Positions 7,815-25,821 of a stretch of DNA of 64,000 bases are shown piece by piece. The position numbers and the translations under genes are program-made. Numbering within the stretch: the first letter of the stretch is position 1; each line of letters starts with the position of its first letter. Source of the stretch: Thermopolyspora flexuosa (GTDB lineage Bacteria; Actinomycetota; Actinomycetes; Streptosporangiales; Streptosporangiaceae); the NCBI RefSeq assembly GCF_006716785.1, contig NZ_VFPQ01000001.1, positions 1,488,001-1,552,000 on the forward strand, in the 5' to 3' direction. The notes below the pieces were generated by a model. That model was not told the origin of the DNA and searched no databases. It saw only the letters and a list, made by a program, of their open reading frames with translations.

Positions 7815-8378
7815 TCAGGAGCCCTTCCCGGGAGTGGGTGAGGGGACGGCGTCGCCGAGCAGCCTCGGTGCGATCAGCCTCATCAGCGCCACGACGTCCG
7901 CCTCGTGGTCACGGCCTTCCGCGCCGCGGTCCATGTCCACGACGAGCATGGACTTCCCCCGGATCAGGACCGCGAGCGCACCCGCGTGATCCCCGAACCG
8001 GGTCGCGGAATAGTAGCCGTCCGCGTCCGCGAGAATCCTGGGAAGGCGCTTGGCACCGTCACGGACCTCCGACTCGACCCGTCCGGGATCATTGTTGGTG
8101 GCCAGCTCGATGTCGAGAACCTTCACCTCTTCTTCGTCCGGGCGGTAGACCCCGCACCACCCTTCTCGATCCCCATCCGCCGGAGCCAGCTCGAAAGAGC
8201 CTTTGGCCGGGGGGTTGCGCAGCCCCGTCATGCGCTCCACCGCCTGCAGGGGCACGTGATCGCAGACGAATGGCGGAGAGGCCGTCGTGGGCAGGGGCGT
8301 GGTGTCCGGCCGGCTGCATGCCGTGGTCAGGATGCACGCGGCCAGGACCGCCGTGAACAACGCTCTTCTCGGCGTCAT
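7815..8378 (-). CDS. Lipoprotein of the duplicated 'CDHVPLQAV' family (copy 1)
   Basis: 187 residues. The signal runs MTPRRALFTAVLAACILTTAC, with lipobox TTAC. The mature part opens with PPFVCDHVPLQAVERMTG and has a second Cys in REGWCGVYRP, the spacing of DUF3558-like actinobacterial lipoproteins, then ALMRLIAPRLLG near the end. The ATG start overlaps the stop of the 708-residue gene (ATGA), which favours this start over the longer frame. A paralogue lies at 11057-11641. Function unknown; genetic coupling links it to the DUF6571-like and WXG-like neighbours. Confidence 0.82.
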   Translation of the reverse strand: MTPRRALFTAVLAACILTTACSRPDTTPLPTTASPPFVCDHVPLQAVERMTGLRNPPAKGSFELAPADGDREGWCGVYRPDEEEVKVLDIELATNNDPGRVESEVRDGAKRLPRILADADGYYSATRFGDHAGALAVLIRGKSMLVVDMDRGAEGRDHEADVVALMRLIAPRLLGDAVPSPTPGKGS

Positions 8379-10501
8379 TGGAACTTCCTGAACCCCTTTT
8401 GGTATCCGCTGCTCAACGCGGCCTCGACCTCGGACCACGTCTTTCCCGCCAGTCCTTCGTACAGCCATCGGCGATACGCGTCGTAGGCAACGGGATTGCC
8501 GTCGGCATCCCGGGAAGCGAGCATCTCCGCCCGAGTCAGCAGGGTCGTGCCGTCCTCCTTCAGGAAGTTGTTCGGAGCCTTGCGGGGGTCGTCACCGGGA
8601 CGGAGATCGCTCAGCGACGCCCAGGGGTGGGTCTTTGCGGGAGGATCCGCCGAGCCGAACAGCCCGTGATCGAGGAGGGACTGGGCGGCGAGCTGGTGCA
8701 CGAGAAACTCGATCTCCGCCGCTGTGCCGTTCGCTTTCCGCACGGCCTTTTCCGTCGACGCCTCGGTCTCCAGCGCGTTCTCGATGACGCCGGTCCAGGA
8801 TGAGGTCGTGCCGGCCACGATCGGCCATCCCGCGTGCTGCGGAATGGAGAGCCCGGAATTGACCAGGGCGATCACGATTTTCACGGCATTGTTCTGCCGC
8901 TCGTCCAGCTCCTTGCCTGCCGCGATGGTCGCGACACCTGCCGCACTCGTGATGAACCCGAATCCTGCGCCGAGCTCTCTCGCCGCCGCTTTGAAAGCGA
9001 CGCTGCCCCGCCCGTCCGCCAATTCGGCGGCACTCGCGCCCAGCAGCATGCGCGCCCATATGGTCTGCGCGCCGGAGACCATGGCGAACGCTTTCGGGTC
9101 GGCCTGGAAAACCTCCTTCATCACCGCATGCAGCTCTTCCCGGTCGAACCGGGCTCCCCAGTCCTCCCGGCCGGGCAACAGCGCGTGATCCTCTCCGGCG
9201 ACACCCGGTTTGGCGTCCGCGCCTGCGGCGGCGACCCGATTCACGTCGCGGATGTAGGAGGCGAAGATCTGGCTGAGGGCTTCGGGGGAGAGCCGCAGCG
9301 AACGTCCCCGGTCGAGGCGTTGCGCCTCCAGGTGGATGACCTGGGACGCCAGCTTGGCGGACAGGTAGCCCCGGGACGGGTTGTCCGCCGATCCGGCGTG
9401 GTCGCGGAACACCGTGGTCGCGGCGAGCAGCGCCGCGCTCAGTGCCTTACCGTCGTCCAGCGCGCGCCGCTCGTTCATGAGCCGGTCGAGGACGCCGGGC
9501 TGGGCGAAGAAGTCCTGCGCCGCTGCGGGGACGCGGGACAGGGCGGTCAGCACCCCGGGCAGCGGATCGAGGACCGGGACGCGGTTCGCCGCTTCGATCT
9601 TTCTCGCCACGTCCAGCAGGAAGGCGGCGTCGTAGGTGCCGTGCATCAGGGCACGGGAGAGCCAGTAGTGCTGCCCCTCCGACCCCTTGGCCGTCAGCTC
9701 CGCTCGCCAGGCGGCGTCCAGGCGCGGGCTCGCCGCGGCCAGAGCCTTCCCCAGGGCGGCCTGGAGACGCTGCGCGGCCGCCCGGTCGGTGCCCTTCCCG
9801 GTCGTGGCGAGCACGGTGCGGAACCCGGTCGCGCCGAGGGCGTGCATCAACGCCGTGGCGAAGTCGGCGTCACCGGCGCGTCTCTCCAGCTCGGCGAGCA
9901 CGGTCCGGTCGATCTCGCCGCTGTGGGCGGTACGGCCGAGGGCCAGGGCGGCGGCGTACGCGTCGGGGTCTCCGGCCGCCCGCGCGTACCGGCCCTCGTC
10001 GAAGGGGGCGAGGCCGGTGGCCGGGACGGCGCCGGGGCTCCAGCGTTCCCGGACGGCCTGGACGGCCTCGTGGCGGCGGCGGAGGTCGGGACGCTTGTCG
10101 GCGATCCACTGCCGGGTCTCGCGCAGGACGGCCAGGTGCGAGGTGTCGAGGTCGAGTGCCTCAAGGGCGTGGCGGATGCGCGGCTCGTTGGTGCCGAGGG
10201 TGTCCTGGGCGCGGGCCAGCGCCTTCTCGAAGGCGTCCATCTGCGCCGGGTCGATGCCGGAGAAGCCCCAGCCGCCCGCGTCGGGGCGGACGTCGACCGT
10301 GGGGTGGGGATTGGGGGTGGCGCCCCCGGTGGGATGGCCGTCGCGCCGCGGGGCGGCCTGGGGCGCGGGCGAGGGCTCCGGGGAGGGGCTGGGCGTGGGG
10401 GTGGGGGCCGGATGAATTCCGGATTCGGCGGGCCGGGGCTGCGGTGAGGGGATCGCGGTCGGCTGCGGGTGCGGCGATGGCGCGGAGGGGGATCGTCCCA
10501 T
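8375..10501 (-). CDS. Large DUF6571-like protein with Pro-rich N-terminus
   Basis: 708 residues. The first 75 are Pro/Ser/Thr-rich and probably disordered. A helical region follows (GGWGFSGIDPAQMDAF onwards), then a long helical body with phrases such as DPLPGVLTALSRVP and GSADPPAKTHPWASL near the end. I assign it tentatively to the DUF6571 group, which occurs beside WXG100-type genes in actinomycetes. There is no signal peptide and no visible catalytic motif. The segment GSVAFKAAARELGAGFGFITSAAG is amphipathic to hydrophobic. ATG has GGAGG five bases upstream. First gene of an operon with a lipoprotein and a WXG-like protein. A decayed copy of its 3' part exists at 11706-11990. Confidence 0.75.
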   Translation of the reverse strand: MGRSPSAPSPHPQPTAIPSPQPRPAESGIHPAPTPTPSPSPEPSPAPQAAPRRDGHPTGGATPNPHPTVDVRPDAGGWGFSGIDPAQMDAFEKALARAQDTLGTNEPRIRHALEALDLDTSHLAVLRETRQWIADKRPDLRRRHEAVQAVRERWSPGAVPATGLAPFDEGRYARAAGDPDAYAAALALGRTAHSGEIDRTVLAELERRAGDADFATALMHALGATGFRTVLATTGKGTDRAAAQRLQAALGKALAAASPRLDAAWRAELTAKGSEGQHYWLSRALMHGTYDAAFLLDVARKIEAANRVPVLDPLPGVLTALSRVPAAAQDFFAQPGVLDRLMNERRALDDGKALSAALLAATTVFRDHAGSADNPSRGYLSAKLASQVIHLEAQRLDRGRSLRLSPEALSQIFASYIRDVNRVAAAGADAKPGVAGEDHALLPGREDWGARFDREELHAVMKEVFQADPKAFAMVSGAQTIWARMLLGASAAELADGRGSVAFKAAARELGAGFGFITSAAGVATIAAGKELDERQNNAVKIVIALVNSGLSIPQHAGWPIVAGTTSSWTGVIENALETEASTEKAVRKANGTAAEIEFLVHQLAAQSLLDHGLFGSADPPAKTHPWASLSDLRPGDDPRKAPNNFLKEDGTTLLTRAEMLASRDADGNPVAYDAYRRWLYEGLAGKTWSEVEAALSSGYQKGFRKFQ

Positions 10502-12321: not shown

Positions 12322-15300
12322 ATGAACGCAGGTCTGGTCGCGAACCGCTTCCGTCTCCTGGCTCCCATCGGCACGGGCAACATGGGCGAGGTCTACCGCG
12401 CTGAGGACGTGGCCGCCGCCGATGGTGAGGACCGTGTAGTCGCGCTCAAGCGCATCCTGCGCAGCCGCTCCGGCGTGATCATCGACTCGCGCTCCGACCT
12501 GAAGGCCGTGCAGCGCTTCCAGCGCGAGGTGCGCATCATGCGCAGGCTGCGCCACCCCAACCTGACCCGCATCATCGCCGGCGGCGTGGATGAGCAGGAC
12601 GGCCGGCCGTACCTCGCCATGGAACTGCTCGACGGCGAGCTCCTCAGCGATCTGGTGGCCGAGCAGCCGGAACTCCCCATCGCCTGGGTCGCGGCCCTGG
12701 GCGCGCAGATCGCCGACGGCCTCGCCGCCGCCCACGCCGCCATGGTCGTGCACCGTGACCTCAAGCCCGGCAACGTGATGCTGCTGCGCGGCGGCATGGT
12801 CAAGATCCTCGATTTCGGTATCGGCCGCATCATCGACGACACCGAGGCCGACGGGCTGACCAGCACGGGCGTCACCGTCGGCACGGCCCGCTACATGGCC
12901 CCTGAGCAGTTCCTCTCCGCCGCCGTCACCCAGGCGGCCGACCTGTACGCCTTGGGCTGCGTGCTGTTCGAGCTCGCCACCGGCTACCCGCCGTTCCGCG
13001 GGGCATCCGCGCACGAACTGGGCGACAAGCACATCAACGATGAGCCGCCCAAGGTGAGCATGCTGCGCTCGGACGTCCCCGAGGACATCGTCAGGCTCAT
13101 CGACAGGCTGCTCGCCAAGGAACCGGCCGATCGCCCCGCCGACGCCGTCTCCGTCCGGGAGGCCCTGCTGCCGTACGCGCTGGGGGAGACGAGCCCGGCG
13201 CCGGTCCCCGGATGGGAGGACTTCGACCCGGTACGTCACCTGACCGCCACCCGCGCCGACGGCCGTACCCCCCGGCCGCGGCCCGAGCCCGAGCGGTCCC
13301 CGGCCTCTCGCCGGGCACCGGCCGGCATGGACGTCTTCGCCGTCCACCGCCGTCTCATCGAGGACTACCGGGCCTTCACCGAGGGCGGCACCGTCATCCG
13401 GGACGACCGGATCGCCGCGTTCGTCGAGGAGGACCTGGACGCGGGTTCCCAGTGGCCCACCCCCTGGGTGTCGCTCAACCCGTCCTTCGCTTCCGGCGGG
13501 ACCATCAGGGAACTGGTCGAGCAGCAGGTGCTGCACGAGGAGTGCGCCAACATCTTCCAGGAGGGCAAGACCAAGGGCGGCACCAGCTGCGACGGCACCC
13601 CGCTCACCCTGCACCGCCACCAGCGGGAGGCGATCACCGCCGCCCAGTCCGGCGCGTCCTACGTGCTCACCACGGGCACCGGCTCGGGCAAGTCCCTGTC
13701 GTACATCGTGCCGATCGTGGACCGGGTGCTCAAGGCGCGCGAGAAGGAGGGCCCGAACGCCCGCCGCCGCGTCCGCGCGATCATCGTCTATCCGATGAAC
13801 GCCCTGGTGAACAGCCAGATGGAGGAGCTGCGCAAGTTCCTGCAGGACGGCTACGGCCCGGGCAAGGAGCCGGTCACCTACGCCCGGTACACCGGCCAGG
13901 AGGACGACGAGGAGCGCAAGCGCATCCAGAACAACCCCCCCGACATCCTGCTCACCAACTACGTGATGCTGGAGCTGATGCTGCTCCGCCCGGATGAGCG
14001 GCGCTCCCTGATCAGGATGGCCGAGGGCCTGGAGTTCCTCGTCTTCGACGAGCTGCACACCTACCGGGGACGGCAGGGCGCCGACGTGGGACTGCTCGTC
14101 CGCCGGGTACGCGAAGCCTGCAAGGCCGAACGCCTGCAGTGCGTCGGCACCTCCGCCACCATGTCCAGCGAGGATCCGGGGGCGTACGGCGCGCAGGAGG
14201 CCGCCGAGGATCCGCGGGACGTCGTCGCCCGCGTGGCGAGCACGCTCTTCGGCACCGAGGTACGCCGCGAGAACGTCATCGGCGAGACTCTCGTCCGCGC
14301 CACCGCCGGGCCTCCCGACCGGGTGCCGCCGGAGCGCCTGAACGCACCCGGTGCGCCCCGCGCGTACGAGGACCTCGTCAACGACCCCCTCGCCCGGTGG
14401 ATCGAGTCCCGCTTCGGCCTTACCGAGGACGGCACCGGCCGTCTCGTACGCCGCAGGCCCGCGAAGATCGAGGAGGCGGCGGCCGAGCTCGCCGCGCAGA
14501 CCGGGGTGAAAGTGGAGACCTGCGCCGAGGCGATCCGCGACACCCTGAAGGCGGGCGCGGAGGCGCGGAACCCGGAGACCGGCCGTCCGCTGTTCGCCTT
14601 CCGCCTGCACCAGTTCCTGTCCAAGGGCGACACGGTCTACGTCACCCTGGAGGACAAGCAGACCCGCTACATGACGCGGGACTACCAGCTCGTCCAGCCC
14701 GGCAGCGACGGCAAGATCCTGCTTCCCCTGGCCTTCTGCCGCGAGTGCGGCCAGGAGTACCTCACCGTCTGGCGCACCGAGCGTGACGGCAAGATCGTCT
14801 ATCAGGCGCGCCGCGACACGGTGGCCACCGGCGGCCGGGCCGACGACGGCTACCTGTACGTCGACGACGACCGCCCCTGGCCCGCCACCCTCCAGGAGGC
14901 GATCGAGGCCCGCCGCCTCCCCGAGTCCTGGCTGGAGATCGACGAGCACGGCATCGAGACCGTCCGTCCCTCCTACCGTTCCCGGGTGCCCCGGGCCGTC
15001 ACCGTGGACCCGTACGGCGTCGAGGGCCGCGGCGAGCTGAAGGCCGCCTTCATCCCGTCCCCGTTCCTGTTCTGCCTGCACTGCGGGGTCAGCTACGAGC
15101 AGGTCCGGGGCAAGGACTTCGCGAAGCTGGCCACGCTCGACGCCGAGGGCCGTTCGTCGGCGACCTCCCTGATCTCCGCCTCGATCGTGCGGTCCCTCAT
15201 GGAGATGCCCCCCGAGGCGCTCGACAAGAAGGCGCGCAAGCTGCTCGCCTTCGTCGACAACCGCCAGGACGCCTCCCTCCAGGCCGGTCACTTCAACGAC

Positions 15301-18300
15301 TTCGTGCAGGTCGCCCAGTTGCGCGGCGCGCTGTACCGGGCGGTGCTGGACGCCGGCGAGGAGGGACTCCGCCACGAGGACCTCCCCGACCGCGTCCTGG
15401 AGGCCCTCGCCCTGGATCCCTCCGAGTACACCAAGGGCGACGACCTTCCCCCCTCGCTGGCCCGCAACGCCAAGCGGACCCTCCGCGACGTCATCGCCTT
15501 CCGCCTCTACCTCGACCTGGAGCGCGGCTGGCGCGTCACCATGCCCAACCTGGAGCAGACCGGCCTGCTCGAGATCCACTACGAGGACCTGGACTGGATC
15601 GCCGCCCGGGAGGAGCGCTGGGCGAACCGGCACCCCAGGCTGCGGGAGGCCGAGCCGGGCCGCCGCGCCGAGATCATGAAGGTGCTGCTGGACGAGATGC
15701 GCCGCGGCCTCGCCATCGACGTCCAGTACTTCCGAGACGACTTCGACTCGTTGCAGCGTGCCAGCGAGGAACGCCTCGTCGACCCCTGGCGGCTGACTCC
15801 GAGCGACCGTCCCCGGGTCGGAACCGCCTACCCGCGCGCGTCACGTCCAGGTCTGGACCGCTCCGGCTTGTTCCTGTCCGGTCACGGCAAGTTCGGCAAG
15901 TACCTGCGCCGGGTGCACTTCGGCAGGTCGCTCTCGGCCGATGACGCCCAGCTGATCATCGAGGACGTCCTGGAGGTGCTCGCCGAGGCCCACCTGGTGA
16001 CCCGGGTCGAGGTCGCCCCGCAGCAGGCGGGCCGCCGTCGCCGGCCCGCGGGCCCGCCGGTCGTCGGCTACCGTGTGTCCGCCGCCGCCCTGATCTGGCG
16101 TGCCGGAACCGGCGAGACCGGCGCGCACGACCCGCTGACCCGCACCTACGCCAGCGGCGACGGCCCCCGCGTCAACACCTTCTTCCGCGACCTGTACCGC
16201 GACACGGCGAGGGCGCTGGCAGGCCTGACGGCCCGCGAGCACACCGCGCAGGTCCCGCTGCCGGAGCGGGAGCGCCGTGAGGAGGCGTTCCGCAAGGCCG
16301 ATCTGAAGGTGCTGTACTGCTCGCCGACGCTGGAGCTGGGCGTCGACATCTCCGACCTGAACGCGGTGCTCATGCGCAACGTGCCGCCCACCCCGGCCAA
16401 CTACGCCCAGCGCAGCGGCCGGGCGGGCCGCTCCGGCCAGCCCGCCCTGGTCACCACCTACTGCGCCACCGGCAACAGCCACGACCAGTACTACTTCCGC
16501 CGCTCCGACCGCATGGTCGCCGGGGTGGTCACCCCGCCCCGTCTCGACCTCGCCAACGAGGACCTGGTGCGCTCCCACGTGCAGGCGATCTGGCTGGCGG
16601 AGTCGGAGCTGAAGCTCGGCCACTCCATCCCCACGATCATCGACATCTCCTATCCGGAGGACTCCCGCCGCCCGAACCCGCCGCTGCCGCTCGTCGACAG
16701 CGTGCAGCAGGTGCTGCGCGACGAGGCCGTGCAGCGGCGTGCCGTGGCGGCGGCGCACCGCGTGCTGGACGACCTGTTCGCCGGCTTCGACCGGGCCTCG
16801 GTCACCTGGCTGCACGACGGATGGATCGAGGAGAAGGTACGGCTCGCCCCCGAGGAGTTCGACCGCGCCTTCGACCGCTGGCGCGACCTGTACCGGGCGG
16901 CCCTGATCGACCAGTACGAGCAGAACCGCCGGGTCCTCGACCACACCCTCACCGAACGGGACCGGAAGATCGCGGAGCGGCGCCGCCACGAGGCCGAGAC
17001 GCGGCTGAGACTGCTCAAGAACGAGAGCCTCGACAGCAGGTCGCTGCTGTCCGACTTCAACCCCTACCGCTACCTGGCCAGCGAGGGCTTCCTGCCCGGC
17101 TACTCGTTCCCGCGGCTGCCGCTCGCCGCGTACATCCCGACCACGGGCCGCCGGTCCGGCGACGGCGACTACCTGCAGCGGCCCCGCTTCCTGGCGATCC
17201 GCGAGTTCGGCCCCGGCGCGCTCATCTACCACGAGGGCGCGCGCTACCAGGTCACTCGTATCCAGCTGCCACCGGACACGACCGGCGATCTGGTCACCGG
17301 GGAGGCGCAGCGCTGCCCGGCCTGCGGCTACCATCACGAGCCGGCCGACCGGGACGACCGGTGCCGCATGTGCGACACCCCGCTCGGCGTCCCCACCACG
17401 GGGCTGCTGCAGCTGCACACCGTCTACACCACCCTTCGCGAACGCATCTCCTCGGACGAGGAGGAACGCCGCCGGGCCGGGTTCAAGCTGGTCACCTCCT
17501 ATCGCTTCCAGGACCACGGCGCCCGCCCGGGCCGCGTGGACGCCCTGGTGTCGGACGCCGAGGGCAGGATCGCCACCGTCTCGTACGGCGATTCGGCCCG
17601 GGTCCGCGTCACGAACCTGCGGCGGCTGCGCGCCAAGCCCGACGAGCCGGACGGCTACTGGCTCGACCCGGCCGACGGACGCTGGCTGAACGAACGCGAC
17701 GCCGCCGAGGCGTCCGGCGACTCCAGCGAGATGCCGGTGGCCGACGCGGACGGGAACGAGAAGCGGCGTAAGATCCGGGTCATCCCGTATGTCCAGGACA
17801 CCCGCAACATCCTCGTGCTGAAGCTGGAGCAGCGGCTCGAGGTCCCGATGGCGTTGTCGCTGATGTACGCGCTGGAGCGGGGTATCGAGGCCGCGTTCGA
17901 GCTGGAGGACTCGGAGCTCACCAGCGAGCTGCTGCCCTCCGACGACCAGCCCACGGACCGCATCCTGTTCACCGAGGCGGCCGAGGGGGGTGCCGGAGTG
18001 CTGCGCCTGATGCAGTCGCAGCCGGGCGCGCTCGCCCGCGCGGCCGCCGAGGCCCTCGCCATCTGCCATTTCGACGAGGAGGGCAACGACCTGGGCGGCC
18101 CGCACCCGGACCGGCCCTGCGCCCGGGGCTGCTACGAGTGCCTGCTCACCTACGGCAATCAGATCCACCACTGGGCCATCGACCGCCACGCCGTACGCGA
18201 CCTGCTGCTGCGGTTCGCCCGGGCCAGGGCCGTGCCCACCGGTCCCGGTGAGTCACGCACCGAGCAGCTCGCCCGGCTCACCGCCCAGGCGGACACCGCC

Positions 18301-18603
18301 CTGGAGGCCAGGCTCATCACCTGGCTCAAGGAGCGGGGTCTGCGCCTGCCCGACGAGGCGCAGACGCTCATCCCGGAGGCGCACGCCCGCCCCGACTTCG
18401 TCTACCGCCTGCCCGGCGTCAACGTCGCGGTCTTCGTCGACGGCCCGGTCCACGACGCCGCCGACGTCGCCCAGCGCGACCGCGAGGCCGAGGAGCGCCT
18501 GCTCGACCTCGGCTGGGACGTCGTCCGCTTCCCGCACGACGGCGACTGGGCCGCGATCGCCCGCGAGTTCGAGCGCTACTTCGGCCCGGGAGTGAACACG
18601 TGA
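12322..18603 (+). CDS. Ser/Thr kinase - DEAD-like helicase - DUF1998 - nuclease-like fusion (DISARM DrmA/DrmB-related)
   Basis: 2093 residues. (1) Hanks kinase, residues 1-290, with all key residues: GTGNMGEV loop at 17, Lys43, Glu69, HRDLKPGN at 144, DFG at 164, APE at 193. (2) Linker rich in Pro/Arg to about 335. (3) Superfamily 2 helicase: TTGTGSGKS at 450 (Lys457), DELH at 576-579, TSATM at 610, and QRSGRAGR at 1363. A four-Cys module is split between CREC (806) and CLHC (918). (4) A zinc ribbon, CPAC...CRMC, near 1665-1690. (5) DUF1998/MZB-type region with CARGCYEC at 1933-1940. (6) C-terminal Vsr/DUF559-like fold: RPDFVY (Asp2025), VAVFVDG (Asp2040). DISARM normally has DrmA helicase and DrmB DUF1998 as separate proteins and no kinase. 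Next come DrmD-like and DrmMI-like genes, so a defence role is strongly inferred. No signal peptide; cytoplasmic. Confidence 0.88.
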   Translation: MNAGLVANRFRLLAPIGTGNMGEVYRAEDVAAADGEDRVVALKRILRSRSGVIIDSRSDLKAVQRFQREVRIMRRLRHPNLTRIIAGGVDEQDGRPYLAMELLDGELLSDLVAEQPELPIAWVAALGAQIADGLAAAHAAMVVHRDLKPGNVMLLRGGMVKILDFGIGRIIDDTEADGLTSTGVTVGTARYMAPEQFLSAAVTQAADLYALGCVLFELATGYPPFRGASAHELGDKHINDEPPKVSMLRSDVPEDIVRLIDRLLAKEPADRPADAVSVREALLPYALGETSPAPVPGWEDFDPVRHLTATRADGRTPRPRPEPERSPASRRAPAGMDVFAVHRRLIEDYRAFTEGGTVIRDDRIAAFVEEDLDAGSQWPTPWVSLNPSFASGGTIRELVEQQVLHEECANIFQEGKTKGGTSCDGTPLTLHRHQREAITAAQSGASYVLTTGTGSGKSLSYIVPIVDRVLKAREKEGPNARRRVRAIIVYPMNALVNSQMEELRKFLQDGYGPGKEPVTYARYTGQEDDEERKRIQNNPPDILLTNYVMLELMLLRPDERRSLIRMAEGLEFLVFDELHTYRGRQGADVGLLVRRVREACKAERLQCVGTSATMSSEDPGAYGAQEAAEDPRDVVARVASTLFGTEVRRENVIGETLVRATAGPPDRVPPERLNAPGAPRAYEDLVNDPLARWIESRFGLTEDGTGRLVRRRPAKIEEAAAELAAQTGVKVETCAEAIRDTLKAGAEARNPETGRPLFAFRLHQFLSKGDTVYVTLEDKQTRYMTRDYQLVQPGSDGKILLPLAFCRECGQEYLTVWRTERDGKIVYQARRDTVATGGRADDGYLYVDDDRPWPATLQEAIEARRLPESWLEIDEHGIETVRPSYRSRVPRAVTVDPYGVEGRGELKAAFIPSPFLFCLHCGVSYEQVRGKDFAKLATLDAEGRSSATSLISASIVRSLMEMPPEALDKKARKLLAFVDNRQDASLQAGHFNDFVQVAQLRGALYRAVLDAGEEGLRHEDLPDRVLEALALDPSEYTKGDDLPPSLARNAKRTLRDVIAFRLYLDLERGWRVTMPNLEQTGLLEIHYEDLDWIAAREERWANRHPRLREAEPGRRAEIMKVLLDEMRRGLAIDVQYFRDDFDSLQRASEERLVDPWRLTPSDRPRVGTAYPRASRPGLDRSGLFLSGHGKFGKYLRRVHFGRSLSADDAQLIIEDVLEVLAEAHLVTRVEVAPQQAGRRRRPAGPPVVGYRVSAAALIWRAGTGETGAHDPLTRTYASGDGPRVNTFFRDLYRDTARALAGLTAREHTAQVPLPERERREEAFRKADLKVLYCSPTLELGVDISDLNAVLMRNVPPTPANYAQRSGRAGRSGQPALVTTYCATGNSHDQYYFRRSDRMVAGVVTPPRLDLANEDLVRSHVQAIWLAESELKLGHSIPTIIDISYPEDSRRPNPPLPLVDSVQQVLRDEAVQRRAVAAAHRVLDDLFAGFDRASVTWLHDGWIEEKVRLAPEEFDRAFDRWRDLYRAALIDQYEQNRRVLDHTLTERDRKIAERRRHEAETRLRLLKNESLDSRSLLSDFNPYRYLASEGFLPGYSFPRLPLAAYIPTTGRRSGDGDYLQRPRFLAIREFGPGALIYHEGARYQVTRIQLPPDTTGDLVTGEAQRCPACGYHHEPADRDDRCRMCDTPLGVPTTGLLQLHTVYTTLRERISSDEEERRRAGFKLVTSYRFQDHGARPGRVDALVSDAEGRIATVSYGDSARVRVTNLRRLRAKPDEPDGYWLDPADGRWLNERDAAEASGDSSEMPVADADGNEKRRKIRVIPYVQDTRNILVLKLEQRLEVPMALSLMYALERGIEAAFELEDSELTSELLPSDDQPTDRILFTEAAEGGAGVLRLMQSQPGALARAAAEALAICHFDEEGNDLGGPHPDRPCARGCYECLLTYGNQIHHWAIDRHAVRDLLLRFARARAVPTGPGESRTEQLARLTAQADTALEARLITWLKERGLRLPDEAQTLIPEAHARPDFVYRLPGVNVAVFVDGPVHDAADVAQRDREAEERLLDLGWDVVRFPHDGDWAAIAREFERYFGPGVNT

Positions 18604-18694
18604 CCGGCCGCCGCGACCGCACCCCGGCCACCGTGACCGCCGGATCATCGGGACCGGCACATCCGTACCGCGACGACCATCCGAGGAACCGCAG

Positions 18695-21640
18695 ATGACG
18701 ACCGCCACATACACCCCCGGCTCCTTGGTCTCCGCCCGCGGCCGGGACTGGGTGGTGCTTCCCGAGAGCGAACCCGACATGCTCGTGCTGCGCCCGCTCG
18801 GCGGCACCGACGACGAGGTCGCCGCGGTCTTCCCGGCCTACGAGGAGGTCACCCCCGCCCGGTTCGCGCCTCCGTCGGCCGCCGACCTCGGCAACGAACG
18901 CGCCGCGGGCCTGCTCCGCTCCGCGCTGCGCATAGGCTTCCGCTCCGGTGCCGGGCCGTTCCGCTCCCTCGCCGGCATCGCCGTCGAACCCCGCGCCTAC
19001 CAGCTCGTCCCCCTGCTGATGGCGCTGCGCCAGCGCACCGTGCGCATGCTCATCTCCGACGACGTCGGCATCGGCAAGACGATCGAGGCCGCCCTGATCG
19101 CGGCCGAGCTGCTCGCCCAGGGCAGCGCCCGCCGCCTCGCCGTGCTGTGCTCACCTGCGATCGCCGAGCAGTGGCAGCAGGAGCTGCGCGACAAGTTCGG
19201 CATCGACACCGAGCTCGTGCTCGCCTCCACCGTCTCCCGGCTGGAACGCGACCTCGACCTCGGCCAGTCCCTCTTCGACCGCCACCCGAACGTCGTCATC
19301 TCCACCGACTTCATCAAGTCCGCCCGGCACCGCGACGACTTCGTCCGGCACTGCCCGGACCTGGTCATCGTCGACGAGGCACACACCTGCGTCGCCGCCG
19401 ACGACACCGCCTCCACCCAGACCCAGCTCCGCTACGAGCTGCTCCGCCGCATCGCCGCCGATCCCGAGCGGCACCTGCTGCTGGTGACCGCCACCCCGCA
19501 CAGCGGCAAGGAGAGCGCGTTCCGTAACCTGCTGGGCCTGATCCGCCCCGAGCTGGCCACGGTCGACCTCGGCACCGAGGAGGGCCGTGCCATGCTCGCC
19601 GCGCACTTCGTCGCCCGCAAACGCGCCGATGTGCGGGAATTCCTCACCAAGGAGGACGGGCTGCCGGACGACAGCCTCGCCGAGCAGACGTCCTTCCCCT
19701 CCGACCGGCTGTGGAAGGACGTGACCTACCGGCTCTCCCCGGCCTACCGCGAGCTCCTCCGGGACGCGATCGCGTACGCGGGGGAGCGGGTCACCGCCGC
19801 GGGCCGACAGGGCAAGCGGGAGACACGCATCGCCTGGTGGTCGGCGATCGCCCTGCTGCGCTCCCTGGTGTCCTCGCCGCGTGCCGCGGCCCAGACCTTG
19901 CGCACCCGCTCGGCCGCCGCCTCGGCCACCACCGCGGAGGAGGCGGACCGCCTCGGCGCTCCGCTCACCCAGGACTCGGCCGACAGCGACCACATGGAGG
20001 GCCTGGACGTCGCACCGGGAGCGCGTACCTCCGGCGTCCAGGCCGCGGACGCCGAGCCGGCGGACCCCGATGGTGGGAACACCCGCCTCGCCGAGCTCGC
20101 CGAGCGCGCCGCCGCTCTGGAAGGCCCCCAGCACGACAAGAAGCTGGCCACCCTCATCAGCCAGCTGAAGGCGCTGCTGAAGGAGGGCTACCACCCGATC
20201 GTGTTCTGCCGCTACATCCCCACCGCCGAGTACGTCGCCGACCATCTCAACGGCAGGCTCGGCAAGAAGACGATCGTCCGGGCCGTCACGGGCACCCTCT
20301 CACCGCAGCAGCGCCTGGAGCGCATCGAGGAGCTCGTCGACGCGGCAGGGGAGGACCCCGACGCCCGCCGCGTCCTGGTCGCCACCGACTGCCTGTCGGA
20401 GGGCGTCAACCTCCAGCACTACTTCGACGCCGTCGTCCACTACGACCTGGCCTGGAACCCCACCCGCCACGACCAGCGTGAGGGGCGGGTCGACCGGTTC
20501 GGCCAGAAGCGCGACAAGGTGAAGGTCATCACCATCTACGGCAGCGACAACGGCATCGACGGCAAGGTGCTGGAGGTGCTGCTGAAGAAACACCGCCAGA
20601 TCCGCAAGGACCTGGGCATCTCGGTCTCTGTGCCGGACGCCGCCGCGACCGGGGTCACCGACGCGATCGTCGAATGGCTGCTCATGCGCGGCCTCGACGA
20701 CAACGGCCAGCAGGCCCTGTTCGACATCGAGGAGCTCCAGCGGGTCGAGGAGCGTGCGGCGGCCCTGGAGGCGGAGTGGAACTCGGCCGCCGAGCGCGAA
20801 AAGGCCTCCCGCAGCCGGTTCGCCCAGCGCGCCATCCACCCGGAGGAGGTGGCCCGTGAGGTGGCCGCGATCCGGGAGACCCTGGGCCGCGCCGACGAGG
20901 TCCGCGGTTTCGCACGGCACGCCCTGTCAGCCCTGAACTGCGTGCTCGTCGAGGGGCCGGACGGCGACTTCACCGCCGACATCAGCGGCGCCCCGGCCGG
21001 CCTGCGGGACGCATTGGCCGCCGCGCGCGGCGGCGCCGAGGACGGCGGCCCGATCCGGTTCCGGAACACCCCCTCGGTGGCGCGCGGCGAGGCCGCGCTG
21101 GTCCGCACCGACCCGGTGGTGGGCGCCCTCGCCAACTACGTGCTCAACACGGCGCTCGACCCGAAGGCGAGCGGCCCTCGCCCCGCCCGCCGCTGCGGCG
21201 TCATCCGTACCACCGGGGTCGCCACCCGCACCACGCTCCTGCTGGTCCGCTACCGCTTCCACCTGACCCTGCCGTCCCGCTGGGGAGAACGCCGCCTCGT
21301 CGCCGAGGACGCCCGGGTGCTCGCCTTCGAGGGCGCGCCCGCCAACGCCGTCTGGCTGCCGCCCGACCGGGCGGTGAGCCTGCTCGACGTCACCGCCGAC
21401 GCCAACACCGACCCCACGTTCGGCGAACGCACCATGAACCGTGTCCTCGACGGCCTGGCCGCCGTCGATCCCCACCTCGACGAGTACGGCGAGCGGCTCG
21501 CGGCCGAGCTCCTCGCCTCCCACCGCCGCGTCCGCAGCGCCTCCGGCGAGATCGTCCGCGGCGTGTCCGTCACCGCCCAGAAGCCTGCCGACATCCTCGG
21601 TGTCTACGTCTACCTGCCCGTCTCCGGAGGTGGCGCCTGA
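18695..21640 (+). CDS. SNF2-family helicase, DrmD-like
   Basis: 981 residues. The N-terminal region (GSLVSARGRDWVVLPES) resembles the small beta domain found at the front of DrmD and related SNF2 proteins. Walker A is DDVGIGKT with Lys128, the DEAH box is at 227-230, TATPHSGKE follows, and the second RecA lobe ends with EGRVDRFGQ at 596-604. It should be an ATP-driven DNA translocase. The C-terminal 300 residues contain a charged helical stretch (EELQRVEERAAALEAEW). ATG preceded by GAGGAA, 91 bp after the helicase-kinase gene. Its TGA shares a base with the methyltransferase ATG, so the two are translationally coupled. Confidence 0.9.
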   Translation: MTTATYTPGSLVSARGRDWVVLPESEPDMLVLRPLGGTDDEVAAVFPAYEEVTPARFAPPSAADLGNERAAGLLRSALRIGFRSGAGPFRSLAGIAVEPRAYQLVPLLMALRQRTVRMLISDDVGIGKTIEAALIAAELLAQGSARRLAVLCSPAIAEQWQQELRDKFGIDTELVLASTVSRLERDLDLGQSLFDRHPNVVISTDFIKSARHRDDFVRHCPDLVIVDEAHTCVAADDTASTQTQLRYELLRRIAADPERHLLLVTATPHSGKESAFRNLLGLIRPELATVDLGTEEGRAMLAAHFVARKRADVREFLTKEDGLPDDSLAEQTSFPSDRLWKDVTYRLSPAYRELLRDAIAYAGERVTAAGRQGKRETRIAWWSAIALLRSLVSSPRAAAQTLRTRSAAASATTAEEADRLGAPLTQDSADSDHMEGLDVAPGARTSGVQAADAEPADPDGGNTRLAELAERAAALEGPQHDKKLATLISQLKALLKEGYHPIVFCRYIPTAEYVADHLNGRLGKKTIVRAVTGTLSPQQRLERIEELVDAAGEDPDARRVLVATDCLSEGVNLQHYFDAVVHYDLAWNPTRHDQREGRVDRFGQKRDKVKVITIYGSDNGIDGKVLEVLLKKHRQIRKDLGISVSVPDAAATGVTDAIVEWLLMRGLDDNGQQALFDIEELQRVEERAAALEAEWNSAAEREKASRSRFAQRAIHPEEVAREVAAIRETLGRADEVRGFARHALSALNCVLVEGPDGDFTADISGAPAGLRDALAAARGGAEDGGPIRFRNTPSVARGEAALVRTDPVVGALANYVLNTALDPKASGPRPARRCGVIRTTGVATRTTLLLVRYRFHLTLPSRWGERRLVAEDARVLAFEGAPANAVWLPPDRAVSLLDVTADANTDPTFGERTMNRVLDGLAAVDPHLDEYGERLAAELLASHRRVRSASGEIVRGVSVTAQKPADILGVYVYLPVSGGGA

Positions 21641-24600
21641 TGTCCGCCCGTGCCAGCACCCCCCCCACCGCCACGTTCGGCCCGGCGACCTCGCGAGCAA
21701 CGGGTCTGCGCAACCACGTCTTCACCGCCGTGTCCGCCGTGGGCGGCCTGCTCCCGCCCGACATGCTGATCCGCATCGCCGAGGACCGTGGCGTCCCGGG
21801 CAGCAAGCCCGCCGACTACCGCGTGGTCGGTTCCCGCTCGGTGCGCGACGAGGCCGAACGCCACTGGGACTACCTCAAGTCCATCTGGCAGGAGCTCCGG
21901 GAAAAGCTTCCGGTGGCGCCGGAGACCGAGACCCCGGCCGACCCCACCGGCGTTGCGATCAGCCAGTGGCTCGAGCCTCTCTTCGCCGAGCTGGGCTTCG
22001 GCGACCTGACGAAGGTCGCCCCGCCCGGTCTGCGCTCCGACGACGGCGAGAAGATCTTCCCCATCAGCCACCACTGGTCGCACGTCCCGATCCACATGGT
22101 CCCCTGGAACGTCGGCCTCGACCGGCGGCCGGCGCCCGGCGCGATCCCGCCGCATTCGCTGCTCCAGGAGTGCCTGAACCGGACCGAATCGCACCTGTGG
22201 GGCGTGGTCACCAACGGCCGCCGCCTGCGCCTGCTTCGCGACTCCAGCGCCCTCGCCACCGCCTCGTACGTCGAGTTCGACCTGGAGGCGATCTTCGACG
22301 GCGAGCTGTTCAGCGAGTTCGTCCTGCTCTACCGGATGCTGCACGTCTCCCGTTTCAAGGTCGAGGACGGCAAGTCGCCCTCGACGTGCTGGCTGGAGAA
22401 GTGGCGCGAGGAGGCGATCGCATCCGGCACCCGGGCGCTGGACCATCACCGCGACGGCGTGCAGCGGGCGATCACCGCCCTCGGCACCGGCTTCCTCCGG
22501 CACCCCGCCAACGAACGGCTGCGCGCCGACTTGGACGTGGACGCCTTCCACGTCGCCCTGCTCCGCCTCGTCTACCGGCTGATCTTCCTCTTCGTGGCGG
22601 AGGACCGCGGCCTGCTCCACCCGCCCGAGGCGAGCGAGGAGGCCCGTCTCCGGTACGCCAGGTACTTCTCCACCGCGCGGCTGCGCCGCCTGGCGAACCA
22701 GCGCCGTGGCACCGCGCACGGCGACCTCTACGAGGCGCTGCGCTTCGTCCTGAACGCCCTGGGCAACGAGAACGGCCTGCCGGAGCTGGGCCTGCCCGGC
22801 CTCGGCGGCCTGTTCGACGAGACCGACGCCGACGCGCCGCTGCGGGGCCTGTCCCTGTCCAACGCGGACCTGCTGGAGGCGGTACGCCACCTTTCCCGCG
22901 TCCGGGACGTGCACTCGGCCCGCTGGCGTCAAGTGGACTACCGCAACATGGGCGCCGAGGAACTCGGCTCCATCTACGAGTCGCTGCTCGAGCTCGTCCC
23001 CAAGCACAGCGCGATCGACCGCACCTTCGAGCTGGTCAACCGCCTCGGCAACGAGCGCAAGAGGACCGGCTCGTACTACACGCCGAGCTCGCTCATCGAG
23101 AACCTGCTCGACTCGACCCTCGACCCGGTGATCGACGACGCGCAGAAGCGCGGCGAGGAGAAGGCGGCCGCCGCCGGCGAGCCCGACCCCACCGAGCACA
23201 TCGTGGCCGAGCTGCTGTCCCTCACCGTCTGCGACCCGGCCTGTGGCTCGGGCCACTTCCTCGTCGCCGCCGCCCGCCGCATCGCCAAGCGGATCGCGGC
23301 GGTGCGGGAACGCAACCCCGAGCCCACGGTCGAGGCGGTACGGCATGCCATGCGCGAGGTGGTCACGCGCTGCATCTACGGTGTCGACCTCAACCCGATG
23401 GCGGTCGAACTGGCCAAGCTGTCGCTGTGGCTGGAGGCCCTTGAACCGGGAAAGCCGCTCGGTTTCCTCGACGCGCACATCAAGCAGGGCAACGCGTTGA
23501 TCGGGGCGACCCCTGCGTTGCTGCGCGACGGCATTCCGAACGCGGCGTTCAAGGCGATTGAGGGCGATGATCCGGACTATGCAAGGTTTCTGGAGGAGCA
23601 GAACGACCAGGAACGTGCTGGCCAAGTCGGCCTATTCGAGATGCACACGGCCACGAAAGTGGCCAACACCGCTTTCGCCTCCGGCTTGCGCAAGATTATG
23701 GCCGGACCATCCGGAAGTCTTGTCGACGTCCGTCGGCAGGCGGCGGAGTATCGTGCGTGGGAGCAGTCGGCGGAGTATATAAAAGCCCGTCACATCGCCG
23801 ACGCCTGGTGTGCTGCGTTCATGTGGCGCAAGACGAAGGACGCGCCGCCCCCGATAACCCATGAGGTATTCCGTGCCCTCCAGGACCCGGACGCCAAGGC
23901 CGCCCCGCAAGAGACACACGAGGAGATCGAACGGCTCCGCAGGCAATACGGCTTCTTCCACTGGCACTTGGCATTCCCAGACGTGTTCTCGGTTCCGGAA
24001 GGCGGCGTGGGTGAGGAGGTGAATCCAGATACCGGTTGGGTAGGGGGATTTTCATGTGTTCTCGGTAACCCGCCTTGGGACAAGGTGGACTTCGAAGACA
24101 AGAAATACTTCAGCGTTGTCGATCCATCGATCGCAGCTATCGCTGGCACTGCCCGACGAGCTCGGATAGCTCAGTGGATCGTGGAGAATCCCGAGGAAGG
24201 CAATCGCTATCTAGCCGAGCGCCGCAAGGTAAAAGCAACTTTGCACTTTGCTGGCAAGTCTGGTGTATTTCCTCATTGTCAGAGAGGGCTTAGCGTTAAG
24301 GGAGTGACCTCACTTTTCATAGATCATCTGTTCGTCGAGCGATTTTCTCAAATTGTTGCTCCGACGGGCCGGTTCGGATGTGTCATTCCCACGACGATAG
24401 CGACGGGAGCAGGATCGCAATACCTCTTTCGTAGCCTTTCTCAACGAGGGGCCATAGCTTCTCTATATGACTTCGAGAATCGGAAGCCGCTGTTTGTCGG
24501 AGTGCACTCGAGCTATAAGTTCTGCCTACTGTCGATGGTGGGTCGAGATTTGTATGAGCCTCGGGCCGAATTCGCCTTTTTTCTCGCAGACGTCTCTGAG

Positions 24601-25821
24601 CTCAACAACGTTGATCGTGTATTTGGGTTGAGTCCCGAAGAAATCTCCCTCATGAATCCCAATACGGGAAATCTGCCGATCTTTCGAACGCGTCGCGACG
24701 CTGATCTTACAGCTGCCATTTATAGCAGGATCCCTGTTTTGAGTAGGAACTCCGATCCTCATGCATGGCCTATCGACTTCGTTCCGACGATGTTCCATAT
24801 GACGGACGATTCGGACCTTTTCCGGACTCGTGATCAGCTGGAAGTCGAGGGCTGGGAGCTCCAGGGGAATGTGTTCGTCCGGGATGGGAAGCGGATGCTG
24901 CCGCTGTATGAAGCAAAAATGGCGCACCACTTTGACCATCGCTGGAACTCTTATTATGGTACGGGAAATGATGATCGGCGGCGCTTGACTTTAGATGAAA
25001 AGTGCGATCCATTGGCAGTGGTAAGTCCGCGTTACTGGGTCGCAGAAGATGGATTTATTGCGACCGTGAGGAAGAATAAGAACGTAGAAATTCCTGGAGT
25101 TGCTCTGCGTCTGGCGGAGTTGGGGTGGGACCGAGACTGGCTCTGTGGCTGGCGAGATGTATGCCGAACTACTGATGAGCGTACAGCTATTCCTGCATTC
25201 CTTCCGCGAGTCGCCGTGGGTCACACATTTCCCTTGATGCTCCCGCGCGTCTCGCCTGATCTCGCCGCAGCTCTTATAGCCGTGCAGAGTTCTCTGGTAT
25301 TCGACTTCGTGAGTCGCCAAAAAGTGGGCGGTATTCATATGGCTCTCATGGTCTGGAAGCAGCTACCTGTGCCGTCCCCCGAAATGCTTAAGCCTCATAC
25401 TTCATTTATTACGCCTCGAGTCCTCGAGCTTGTATACACCAACTACGAGATGGCTGGACTAGCGCATGATCTCGGCTGTTCGTCCGCACCCTTCCGCTGG
25501 GACGAAGAGCGGCGGGCACAGATTCGCGCCGAGCTGGACGCCTATTTCTTCCATCTCTACGGAATAAGCCGTCCGGACGTGGACTACATCCTGGAGACCT
25601 TCCAGTCCGAGAGCGGTGGCCTCAAGAACAACGAGATCGCCCGATACGGCAGGTACCGCACCAAGGAACTCGTCCTCGACGCCTACGACCGCATGGCCGC
25701 GGCGGGCGTCGACCTGGCCAGCCCTCTCGTCGATGGCGAGAACTACGTCTCACCGCTCACTCCGCCCCCGGGGCACGGGCCCCGGCACCCGGAGAGCGGC
25801 GGCGATGCGGGCCGCGTGTGA
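21640..25821 (+). CDS. N6-adenine DNA methyltransferase, DrmMI/PglX-like (Eco57I class)
   Basis: 1393 residues. SAM-binding motif I is VCDPACGSGHF at 530-540 and catalytic motif IV is NPPWD at 810-814, the N6-adenine class. GSYYTPSSLIE precedes motif I, as in PglX and type IIG enzymes. The N-terminal 480 residues are helical, and the C-terminal 550 should hold target recognition. There is no restriction-nuclease motif that I can point to. In DISARM class 1, DrmMI marks host DNA as self. From about 23.55 to 25.5 kb (residues about 640-1290) the GC content falls to near 50%, e.g. 28 of 60 at 24241-24300, against roughly 70% on both sides, although the frame stays open. That looks like a swapped specificity segment. 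Start overlaps the previous stop by one base. Confidence 0.9.
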   Translation: MSARASTPPTATFGPATSRATGLRNHVFTAVSAVGGLLPPDMLIRIAEDRGVPGSKPADYRVVGSRSVRDEAERHWDYLKSIWQELREKLPVAPETETPADPTGVAISQWLEPLFAELGFGDLTKVAPPGLRSDDGEKIFPISHHWSHVPIHMVPWNVGLDRRPAPGAIPPHSLLQECLNRTESHLWGVVTNGRRLRLLRDSSALATASYVEFDLEAIFDGELFSEFVLLYRMLHVSRFKVEDGKSPSTCWLEKWREEAIASGTRALDHHRDGVQRAITALGTGFLRHPANERLRADLDVDAFHVALLRLVYRLIFLFVAEDRGLLHPPEASEEARLRYARYFSTARLRRLANQRRGTAHGDLYEALRFVLNALGNENGLPELGLPGLGGLFDETDADAPLRGLSLSNADLLEAVRHLSRVRDVHSARWRQVDYRNMGAEELGSIYESLLELVPKHSAIDRTFELVNRLGNERKRTGSYYTPSSLIENLLDSTLDPVIDDAQKRGEEKAAAAGEPDPTEHIVAELLSLTVCDPACGSGHFLVAAARRIAKRIAAVRERNPEPTVEAVRHAMREVVTRCIYGVDLNPMAVELAKLSLWLEALEPGKPLGFLDAHIKQGNALIGATPALLRDGIPNAAFKAIEGDDPDYARFLEEQNDQERAGQVGLFEMHTATKVANTAFASGLRKIMAGPSGSLVDVRRQAAEYRAWEQSAEYIKARHIADAWCAAFMWRKTKDAPPPITHEVFRALQDPDAKAAPQETHEEIERLRRQYGFFHWHLAFPDVFSVPEGGVGEEVNPDTGWVGGFSCVLGNPPWDKVDFEDKKYFSVVDPSIAAIAGTARRARIAQWIVENPEEGNRYLAERRKVKATLHFAGKSGVFPHCQRGLSVKGVTSLFIDHLFVERFSQIVAPTGRFGCVIPTTIATGAGSQYLFRSLSQRGAIASLYDFENRKPLFVGVHSSYKFCLLSMVGRDLYEPRAEFAFFLADVSELNNVDRVFGLSPEEISLMNPNTGNLPIFRTRRDADLTAAIYSRIPVLSRNSDPHAWPIDFVPTMFHMTDDSDLFRTRDQLEVEGWELQGNVFVRDGKRMLPLYEAKMAHHFDHRWNSYYGTGNDDRRRLTLDEKCDPLAVVSPRYWVAEDGFIATVRKNKNVEIPGVALRLAELGWDRDWLCGWRDVCRTTDERTAIPAFLPRVAVGHTFPLMLPRVSPDLAAALIAVQSSLVFDFVSRQKVGGIHMALMVWKQLPVPSPEMLKPHTSFITPRVLELVYTNYEMAGLAHDLGCSSAPFRWDEERRAQIRAELDAYFFHLYGISRPDVDYILETFQSESGGLKNNEIARYGRYRTKELVLDAYDRMAAAGVDLASPLVDGENYVSPLTPPPGHGPRHPESGGDAGRV

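What the first reader, a model, noticed from the sequence alone, without database searches (positions are those of the whole stretch)
12322..25821. Three-gene DISARM-related defence system with a built-in protein kinase
Seen: three consecutive plus-strand genes. They are a kinase-helicase-DUF1998 fusion of 2093 residues, a SNF2 helicase, and an N6-adenine methyltransferase coupled by a one-base stop/start overlap. Known: class 1 DISARM consists of DrmD (SNF2), DrmMI (adenine methylase), DrmA (helicase), DrmB (DUF1998) and DrmC (phospholipase-D nuclease). Pgl/BREX type 2 has a separate kinase (PglW) with a PglX methylase. Inference: here DrmA and DrmB functions are fused, DrmC is absent, a nuclease-like domain is at the helicase C-terminus, and a Hanks kinase is at the front. 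This makes a hybrid of DISARM and Pgl logic. I do not recall a named system with exactly this content.
Basis: partly seen in the sequence, partly recalled or inferred. Interest (0 to 1): 0.92.

Follow-up and report, generated by a model that had tools for sequence, protein, structure and literature searches.

The report
Phage-defence operon with built-in kinase
This is a three-gene bacterial operon of a recently named phage-defence kind (ARMADA Type I) whose motor protein has acquired a signalling kinase in many soil actinobacteria, while the part that probably reads the DNA target keeps being swapped, so it looks like a phosphorylation-controlled, re-targetable anti-virus machine.

Summary
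The three genes lie as stated. The trio is not nameless: content and order match ARMADA Type I (YprA-family helicase, BrxHII/RapA-like SNF2, PglX-like methyltransferase; 2025 preprint PMC12458937). The helicase is DruE-like, not DrmA-like, and the kinase PknA/PknB-like, not PglW-like, so it is no DISARM/Pgl hybrid by descent. The N-terminal kinase is not in that paper's main text ("kinase" 0 times) and I saw it in no other paper searched. It is widespread in Actinomycetes: 78 of 80 retrieved loci carry kinase and helicase in one ORF (the other two are cut by contig ends; the search favoured kinase-bearing loci). Catalytic lysine, HRD and DFG are invariant in 84 of 84. On a helicase tree the kinase-bearing rows form one side of one branch (91 versus 25 kinase-less, support 100). 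Second finding: the methyltransferase's putative target-recognition region varies independently of the rest (identity correlation with helicase r = 0.07; kinase 0.93) and has deviant base composition. Most likely mechanism: methylation marks self, helicase-nuclease plus SNF2 restrict unmarked DNA, the kinase licenses them; this is inferred.

The parts
12322..18603 (+). kinase-YprA helicase fusion protein, 2093 aa (ArmC-like of ARMADA, with kinase)
   Evidence: kinase and helicase in one ORF in 78 of 80 retrieved loci, the other 2 cut by contig ends
12322..13179 (+). PknA/PknB-like Ser/Thr kinase domain, residues ~1-286; K43, E69, HRD 144-146, DFG 164-166, activation-loop T180
   Evidence: Pkinase 150 bits; PknB_PASTA model 244 bits; these residues invariant in 84 of 84 fused proteins, first loop glycine G17 in 70 of 84
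13180..13326 (+). variable Pro/Arg-rich linker, residues ~287-335 (39-59 residues across relatives)
13327..18198 (+). YprA/DruE-like SF2 helicase: Walker A K457, DE 576-577, motif VI R1367/R1370, CxxC pairs (806/809, 918/921, 1665/1668, 1681/1684), MZB zinc domain 1847-1941
18199..18600 (+). C-terminal Vsr-like (PD-(D/E)xK superfamily) nuclease domain, residues 1960-2093; D2025, D2040, H2044
   Evidence: AlphaFold2 and VIA-align; D2025 83 of 84, D2040 82 of 84; the full D..FxDxPxH motif, my own pattern, is kept in only 44 of 86 relatives
18695..21640 (+). SNF2/RapA-like translocase, 981 aa (ArmA-like; DrmD/BrxHII/DpdE relatives)
   Evidence: PADLOC PDLC02853 1616 bits, DrmD 281 bits, BrxH 192 bits; NCBIfam DrmD 298 bits, under its cut-off 610
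21640..25821 (+). PglX/DrmMI-like N6-adenine DNA methyltransferase, 1393 aa (ArmB-like); DPACGSGHF at 532, NPPW at 810
   Evidence: model of residues 455-1393 Z 14.2 (rmsd 5.3) with M.BseCI, 13.0 (rmsd 4.4) with BrxX/PglX, 10.9 with MmeI
24160..25374 (+). putative target-recognition (specificity) region, residues ~841-1245; varies independently of the rest; GC3 0.53 against 0.94 in the methyltransferase core

Best explanation
It is an ARMADA Type I phage-defence operon of a kinase-fused subtype. The methyltransferase marks host DNA at a short motif read by an exchangeable target-recognition region. The SNF2/RapA-like motor and the YprA helicase with its Vsr-like domain act on unmarked invading DNA and block its replication or degrade it. 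The kinase, tethered to the helicase by a ~50-residue linker, autophosphorylates and phosphorylates the helicase or its partners, and so licenses or damps restriction according to infection state. Shown here: anatomy, conservation of catalytic residues, all kinase-bearing helicases on one side of one tree branch, the kept-together trio, and independent variation of the specificity region. Inferred: methylation as the self mark, the direction of kinase control, and that restriction is the output.
For: Trio content and order equal ARMADA Type I. A four-gene Type II relative protects E. coli against 13 of 80 phages without host death and needs the Walker motifs of both ArmA and ArmC and the NPPW motif (PMC12458937 section 6). 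Catalytic kinase residues 84 of 84, N151 83 of 84 and activation-loop T180 84 of 84, so activity, not just the fold, is probably kept. One label change on the tree: 91 fused against 25 unfused, SH-aLRT 100. The widest flanking gene family lies in 23 of 83 upstream and 34 of 77 downstream flanks, so the kinase's partner is probably in the trio or is a host protein encoded elsewhere. MTase motifs 81 and 82 of 82. The specificity region is decoupled: r = 0.07 against 0.93 kinase, 0.95 SNF2, and 0.76 for the 405 most variable helicase columns; GC3 lower than core in 80 of 82. Precedent: kinase-dead PglW (K677A) does not autophosphorylate and its lysine is required for Pgl function (PMC4365076 passages).
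Against: I saw no phage data for any Type I system or for this one. No substrate of the kinase is known: a search for acceptor sites kept only in kinase-bearing systems gave a weak signal (helicase 14 of 76 invariant S/T columns, SNF2 7 of 48, MTase 1 of 27), and S/T columns may simply evolve faster. The Vsr-like motif is incomplete in 42 of 86 relatives (one of these, L089, ends before it), so cleavage by that domain may not be general. Kinase-less relatives of the helicase are at least as common (16 of 296 class genomes against 11 fused; the trio was not checked in most of them), so the kinase is not needed for the core function. Decoupling is graded along the methyltransferase (r = 0.48 for 461-640, 0.35 for 641-840, 0.36 for 1261-1390), so the exchanged piece has no sharp edges.
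Confidence: 0.6

Rival explanations
1. The kinase is a back-up effector: when the DNA-restricting arm is engaged or defeated, it phosphorylates host proteins and stops growth (abortive infection), as Stk2-type kinases do (recalled).
For: The kinase is a generic PknA/PknB-like type that could accept many host substrates; PADLOC PD-T4-6 kinase models match it. PMC12839542 (passage) suggests such a suicidal role for the PglW kinase, by analogy with DndF.
Against: Tethering to a DNA motor by a short linker points to local targets. The four-gene ARMADA Type II relative is non-abortive (PMC12458937), but no kinase is described there, so that is weak evidence.
Confidence: 0.2
2. The kinase is mainly a bait or sensor: phage interference with host kinases, or loss of its phosphorylation, unleashes the helicase (guard logic).
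For: A fused, conserved, generic kinase would be a plausible bait; the title of a cited paper (Li et al. [quoted passage not shown]
Against: A bait would not obviously need perfect catalytic residues over 84 proteins.
Confidence: 0.1
3. Not defence: a DNA-repair or chromosome-maintenance complex under kinase control.
For: YprA/MrfA relatives of the other main branch act in DNA repair (PMC12458937); the window's recognisable neighbours are ordinary chromosomal genes.
Against: Patchy distribution (11 of 296 class genomes), a methyltransferase with a freely varying specificity region, neighbouring DrmA and McrC in subsets of loci, and plasmid-borne relatives.
Confidence: 0.05

Closest known systems
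ARMADA Type I (Bell et al. 2025, PMC12458937)
   Same: YprA-family helicase first, then BrxHII/RapA-like SNF2, then PglX-like methyltransferase; C-terminal Vsr-like nuclease; helicase nearest Druantia's; abundant in Actinomycetota
   Different: N-terminal PknA/PknB-like kinase, not mentioned in that paper's main text (0 occurrences; its supplements could not be read); variation of the specificity region not discussed there ('TRD' 0)
ARMADA Type II (E. coli NCTC 12900)
   Same: homologous SNF2, methyltransferase and YprA helicase; tested against phage
   Different: order SNF2-MTase-YprA plus a fourth GajB-like/RelE gene; no kinase described in the main text
Druantia (DruE)
   Same: helicase best PADLOC match 329 bits; DruE of Druantia III is described as a helicase-nuclease effector (PMC13192584, abstract)
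   Different: Druantia III is DruH plus DruE, without this MTase and SNF2
DISARM class 1
   Same: SNF2 (DrmD, 298 bits) and methyltransferase (DrmMI, 223.5 bits) are homologous
   Different: helicase is not DrmA (48 bits), helicase and zinc module are not split, no DrmC seen among the ORFs scanned
BREX type 2 / Pgl
   Same: a kinase and a PglX-related methyltransferase in one system; kinase activity of PglW is required
   Different: PglW is NERD-pseudokinase-kinase (PMC12839542 passage), not helicase-fused; our kinase is PknB-like
MexAMORF1192P type IIG-like system (PMC4752239, S4 Fig legend, passage)
   Same: MTase-TRD protein between two translocases, one with DUF1998
   Different: separate HNH endonuclease; no kinase mentioned in that passage

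Membership tests
ARMADA Type I | YprA-family SF2 helicase continuous with MZB/DUF1998 zinc domain | tested here: met
   Pfam DEAD, Helicase_C, MZB in one ORF above cut-offs
ARMADA Type I | helicase closer to Druantia DruE than to DISARM DrmA | tested here: met
   DruE 329 bits, DrmA 48 bits for the kinase-free part
ARMADA Type I | BrxHII/RapA-like SNF2 and PglX-like methyltransferase genes, in the order YprA-SNF2-MTase | tested here: met
   fold match to BrxX/PglX Z 13.0
ARMADA Type I | predicted active Vsr-type nuclease at helicase C-terminus | tested here: met
   Z 8.4 with E. coli Vsr, 9.4 with I-Bth0305I; motif intact in the window, but in only 44 of 86 relatives; activity itself not tested
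ARMADA Type I | BrxA-like insert after RecA1, zinc beta-barrel and MarR-like inserts in RecA2 | not tested
   CxxC pairs at 806/809 and 918/921 are conserved, but the inserts were not modelled
ARMADA Type I | falls in the ARMADA I clade of the published YprA tree | not testable with these tools
   their alignment and supplements are not held; our trees hold fused rows and kinase-less relatives only
ARMADA Type I | anti-phage activity | not testable with these tools
   shown in the sections read for a Type II system only
DISARM class 1 | DrmA helicase with a separate DrmB | tested here: not met
   DrmA 48 bits; helicase and zinc domain in one ORF
DISARM class 1 | DrmC phospholipase-D nuclease | tested here: inconclusive
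   none among the flanking ORFs scanned, which were not exhaustive
BREX type 2 / Pgl | PglW-type kinase (NERD plus tandem kinase domains) | tested here: not met
   PglW model 58 bits against PknB model 244; no NERD in Pfam
BREX type 2 / Pgl | PglZ and BrxC/PglY | tested here: inconclusive
   not among the three genes or the scanned neighbours, which were not exhaustive
Dpd | DpdE SNF2 gene within a 7-deazaguanine insertion cluster | tested here: inconclusive
   SNF2 scores 1616 bits with one PADLOC 'DpdE' model, but only 179 with NCBIfam DpdE, cut-off 500; no dpd biosynthesis gene among the ORFs scanned

The most novel reading that the evidence does not exclude
A phosphorylation-switched, re-targetable restriction machine: one capture of a PknB-like kinase turned ARMADA Type I into a subtype in which infection sensing is a kinase event in the motor itself, while the target is set by a plug-in recognition module that moves between kinase-bearing and kinase-less systems of distant phyla (the window's module scores 300 bits with a Thermus plasmid system, more than with 33 of its 81 kinase-bearing relatives).
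Probability: 0.35. Interest if true: 0.78.

Novelty: new variant of a known kind. Interest (0 to 1): 0.6.

Why it matters
How large motor-based defence systems avoid self-damage and decide when to fire is, as far as I know, open for DISARM, ARMADA and BREX alike. Here a Hanks-type kinase sits inside the motor, so kinase-dead, acceptor-site and phospho-mimic mutants make the switch directly testable, with kinase-less ARMADA I, including a natural one in the same genome, as control. The freely varying specificity region gives a natural series of near-identical machines with different putative targets (for example L049 and L053: 96% identical helicase, 31% identical specificity region), well suited to finding motifs and engineering targets.

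Tried and rejected
Rejected: DISARM and Pgl/BREX-2 membership. Set aside: the DpdE label for the SNF2, which rests on one PADLOC model.

Led nowhere: a kinase-specific phospho-acceptor insert in the SNF2 protein. The Ser/Thr-acidic stretch (385-500) exists in kinase-less systems too. The column test for acceptor sites was weak. No near-universal fourth gene turned up: widest family 23 of 83 upstream, 34 of 77 downstream; phosphatase or FHA genes were not searched for by profile. No match in 50,697 phage records (E limit 1e-60).

Limits: one search used two seed patterns, one of them the kinase APE motif, and kept the best 80 of 296 confirmed stretches, so it is biased to kinase-bearing loci and is not a frequency; the frequency is (11 of 296 genomes fused, 16 of 296 kinase-less at E <= 1e-60). 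Correlations use 3160 non-independent pairs and are descriptive; the decoupling and the low GC3 are graded along the methyltransferase and not sharply bounded. The 300-bit Thermus score (tblastn) and the scores (blastp) come from different programs and are only roughly comparable. The quick trees warn of long unfused branches. In 'fused' shows 3 changes because the two contig-cut rows count as another group; fused against unfused alone needs 1. Flank-family counts come from my own open-frame clustering, which includes spurious frames; names were checked on one member each. Rows dropped before counts: L016 and L018 (same genomes as L033 and L065), L024 (fragment); L089 (truncated) left out of the tree and of the correlations; L080 and L099 (contig-cut) left out of the correlations; L113, L118, L120, L123, L130, L139 as duplicates; L108, L111 and L112 left out of the methyltransferase comparison, and L111 out of the SNF2 comparison.
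Full report
Searches give three plus-strand ORFs of 2093, 981 and 1393 codons at the stated places. The first is separated from the second by 91 bases, and the second and third share one base. Pfam finds kinase, DEAD, Helicase_C and MZB in protein 1, SNF2 and Helicase_C in protein 2, and Eco57I, MmeI and N6_Mtase in protein 3. Recognisable neighbours are ordinary chromosomal genes: PadR regulator, epimerase, sulphate permease, beta-lactamase-family protein, DUF3071 and GH15 (6 of the 10 ORFs scanned; 4 had no match), DUF6571, and an ABC transporter pair judged from the translations alone.

What it is. The trio in this order is ARMADA Type I as defined in PMC12458937 (sections 5, 7, 8, 9, 12 and 26 read, section 6). 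The kinase-free part of protein 1 scores 329 bits with DruE and 48 with DrmA. Protein 2 is a RapA/BrxHII/DrmD relative. Protein 3 is a DrmMI/PglX relative; its model (residues 455-1393, mean pLDDT 78) matches M.BseCI at Z 14.2 and BrxX/PglX at Z 13.0. The end of protein 1 folds like Vsr.

The kinase. It is PknA/PknB-like. Its best-scoring stand-alone relative in the same genome is 42% identical, while in fused relatives this domain is 53-73% identical to it. Of 80 named loci retrieved, 78 carry kinase and helicase in one ORF; L080 and L099 are cut by the contig's end. An SNF2 match follows in 79 of 80 (L089 ends first), and a methyltransferase match in 77 of 80 (L028, L029, L089 end first); in L081 the best methyltransferase match covers only its C-terminal part. 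The hosts include Streptomyces, Micromonospora, Nonomuraea, Lentzea, Amycolatopsis, Nocardia, Nocardiopsis, Actinomadura and Pseudonocardia; one record labelled Melainabacteria nests among Pseudonocardiaceae in the tree and is probably misbinned. In an evenly drawn class sample, 11 of 296 genomes have the fused form and 16 have kinase-less forms; in that sample only the window's genome has both. Among 60 relatives searched (own genome included), 7 have the full-length fusion, and G025 there also has both forms. On plasmids, 64 records match the protein; of the 40 listed only one (Streptomyces sp. BHT-5-2) covers the kinase, the others begin at residue 335-337.

Origin and selection. On a tree of the helicase only, all fused rows lie on one side of one branch (83 fused plus 2 contig-cut rows, 10 unfused, support 100; repeated with 91 fused, 25 unfused and a mixture model, support 100, one change). 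Midpoint rooting, for drawing only, places the fused clade inside the unfused ones, which suggests one gain; the counts cannot tell gain from loss. K43, E69, H144, R145, D146, K148, D164, F165, G166 and T180 are unchanged in 84 of 84 and N151 in 83 of 84; the first glycine of the loop, G17, is kept in only 70 of 84. The kinase is therefore very probably active.

The specificity region. The methyltransferase's catalytic motifs are conserved (81 and 82 of 82), yet residues ~841-1245 vary strongly. Over 80 loci and 3160 pairs, identity in this region is unrelated to helicase identity (r = 0.07). The same correlation is 0.93 for the kinase, 0.95 for SNF2, 0.77 for the Vsr-like domain, 0.73 for methyltransferase residues 61-460, and 0.76 for the 405 most variable helicase columns tested against the rest of the helicase; it is already lowered in methyltransferase residues 461-640 (0.48), 641-840 (0.35) and 1261-1390 (0.36), so the effect is graded. 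Of 174 pairs with helicase identity over 0.88, 112 have specificity-region identity under 0.55. In the window, GC falls from about 0.71 to 0.52 at 24000-24999; GC3 starts to fall near residue 600, is about 0.5-0.6 over residues 781-1260 and recovers after 1320; region means are 0.94 core and 0.53 specificity region. GC3 there is lower than in the core in 80 of 82 loci. The window's region gives 300 bits with a Thermus thermophilus plasmid record that also carries a helicase match beginning at residue 336, more than with 33 of 81 kinase-bearing relatives. I read this as exchange of a target-recognition domain, as in restriction-modification enzymes (recalled); that these residues are the recognition domain rests on position after NPPW and fold likeness, and is not proved.

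Mechanism. A Type II relative needs ArmA and ArmC Walker motifs and NPPW for non-abortive protection. In Pgl the kinase PglW is required; its K677A mutant does not autophosphorylate and the lysine is needed for Pgl function (passages of PMC4365076). By analogy, methylation marks self, the motors attack unmarked DNA, and the kinase licenses them. The Vsr-like motif is complete in 44 of 86 fused or contig-cut proteins, so the output may be motor-driven exclusion in some and cutting in others. No conserved extra gene supplies a partner: the widest flanking families lie in 23 of 83 upstream and 34 of 77 downstream flanks.

Context elsewhere. In 15 Streptomycetaceae loci a DrmA gene (677 bits) and in 22 a divergent sigma-70-like gene similar to MzaA (141 bits) lie upstream; McrC (PF10117, 205 bits) lies downstream in 8 (counts, families checked on one member each). 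The fused system thus sits beside other defence genes in some hosts, though not visibly in the window.

Novelty. Searches for DISARM/DUF1998/kinase/SNF2/methyltransferase/antiphage, ARMADA with DISARM and defence, YprA/ARMADA/helicase/phage, threonine kinase with DISARM, Streptomyces, phage, helicase and BREX, PglW with kinase and BREX, DUF1998 with kinase, and ARMADA with Druantia and actinomycetes listed no paper that I could see to describe a kinase-YprA fusion; passages were checked in five (PMC12458937, PMC11090510, PMC12839542, PMC4752239, PMC13316683), the others were seen as listings, apart from the outline of PMC13192584 and passages of PMC4365076 on other terms. Supplements of the ARMADA preprint could not be read, so it may be listed there. 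Verdict: a new variant of a known kind.

Noticed in passing
L015 (G000:C1:4846000-4865900), helicase at L015:9476-14578 (-): The same genome carries a second, kinase-less ARMADA I-like trio (52-53% identical helicase and SNF2, 42% methyltransferase): a natural control.
   Followed up: partly
window 23980-25419: GC dip (0.52 in 24000-24999 against ~0.71) centred on the specificity region of the methyltransferase, beginning weakly near residue 600.
   Followed up: yes
L038:4714-8160 (-) and L041:7716-9836 (-): DrmA helicase (15 loci) and a divergent MzaA-like sigma-70 factor (22 loci) sit upstream of the fused system in Streptomycetaceae.
   Followed up: partly
L072:25041-26189 (+) and L038:23498-25324 (+): McrC (8 loci) and an AAA protein that may be its McrB-like partner (14 loci) lie downstream of fused systems, echoing the published association of a DISARM-like cassette with McrBC.
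   Followed up: partly
L074:23219-24592 (+) and L054:20798-22342 (+): Two conserved downstream genes (13 and 10 loci) without a Pfam match at E 1e-4 or a PADLOC match at 1e-8.
   Followed up: no
L042:7667-9583 (+): A Type I-like N6 methyltransferase with an N-terminal stretch that looks like an HTH lies just upstream in 21 loci, 15 in the same direction, mostly outside Streptomyces.
   Followed up: no
L108:17446-20997 (Deinococcus radiodurans plasmid MP1): Kinase-less ARMADA I-like operon with its methyltransferase annotated as two separate genes and transposase genes on both sides.
   Followed up: no
L106:1-24217 (Nocardioides sp. JS614 plasmid pNOCA01): Kinase-less ARMADA I-like trio on a plasmid typed as conjugative, a few genes from DISARM drmA/drmB.
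   Followed up: no
window 8939-9028 and 41117-41213: ARAGORN calls a tRNA-SeC and a tRNA-Trp inside ORFs with Pfam matches (8375-10501 and 40676-42328); probably false positives.
   Followed up: no
window 18695-21640: PADLOC model PDLC02853, labelled DpdE, matches this SNF2 over its whole length (1616 bits) although no dpd genes were seen among the ORFs scanned; annotation pipelines may mislabel ARMADA SNF2 genes.
   Followed up: partly
L029: A contig labelled Candidatus Melainabacteria carries the fused system and nests among Pseudonocardiaceae: probably misbinned.
   Followed up: no
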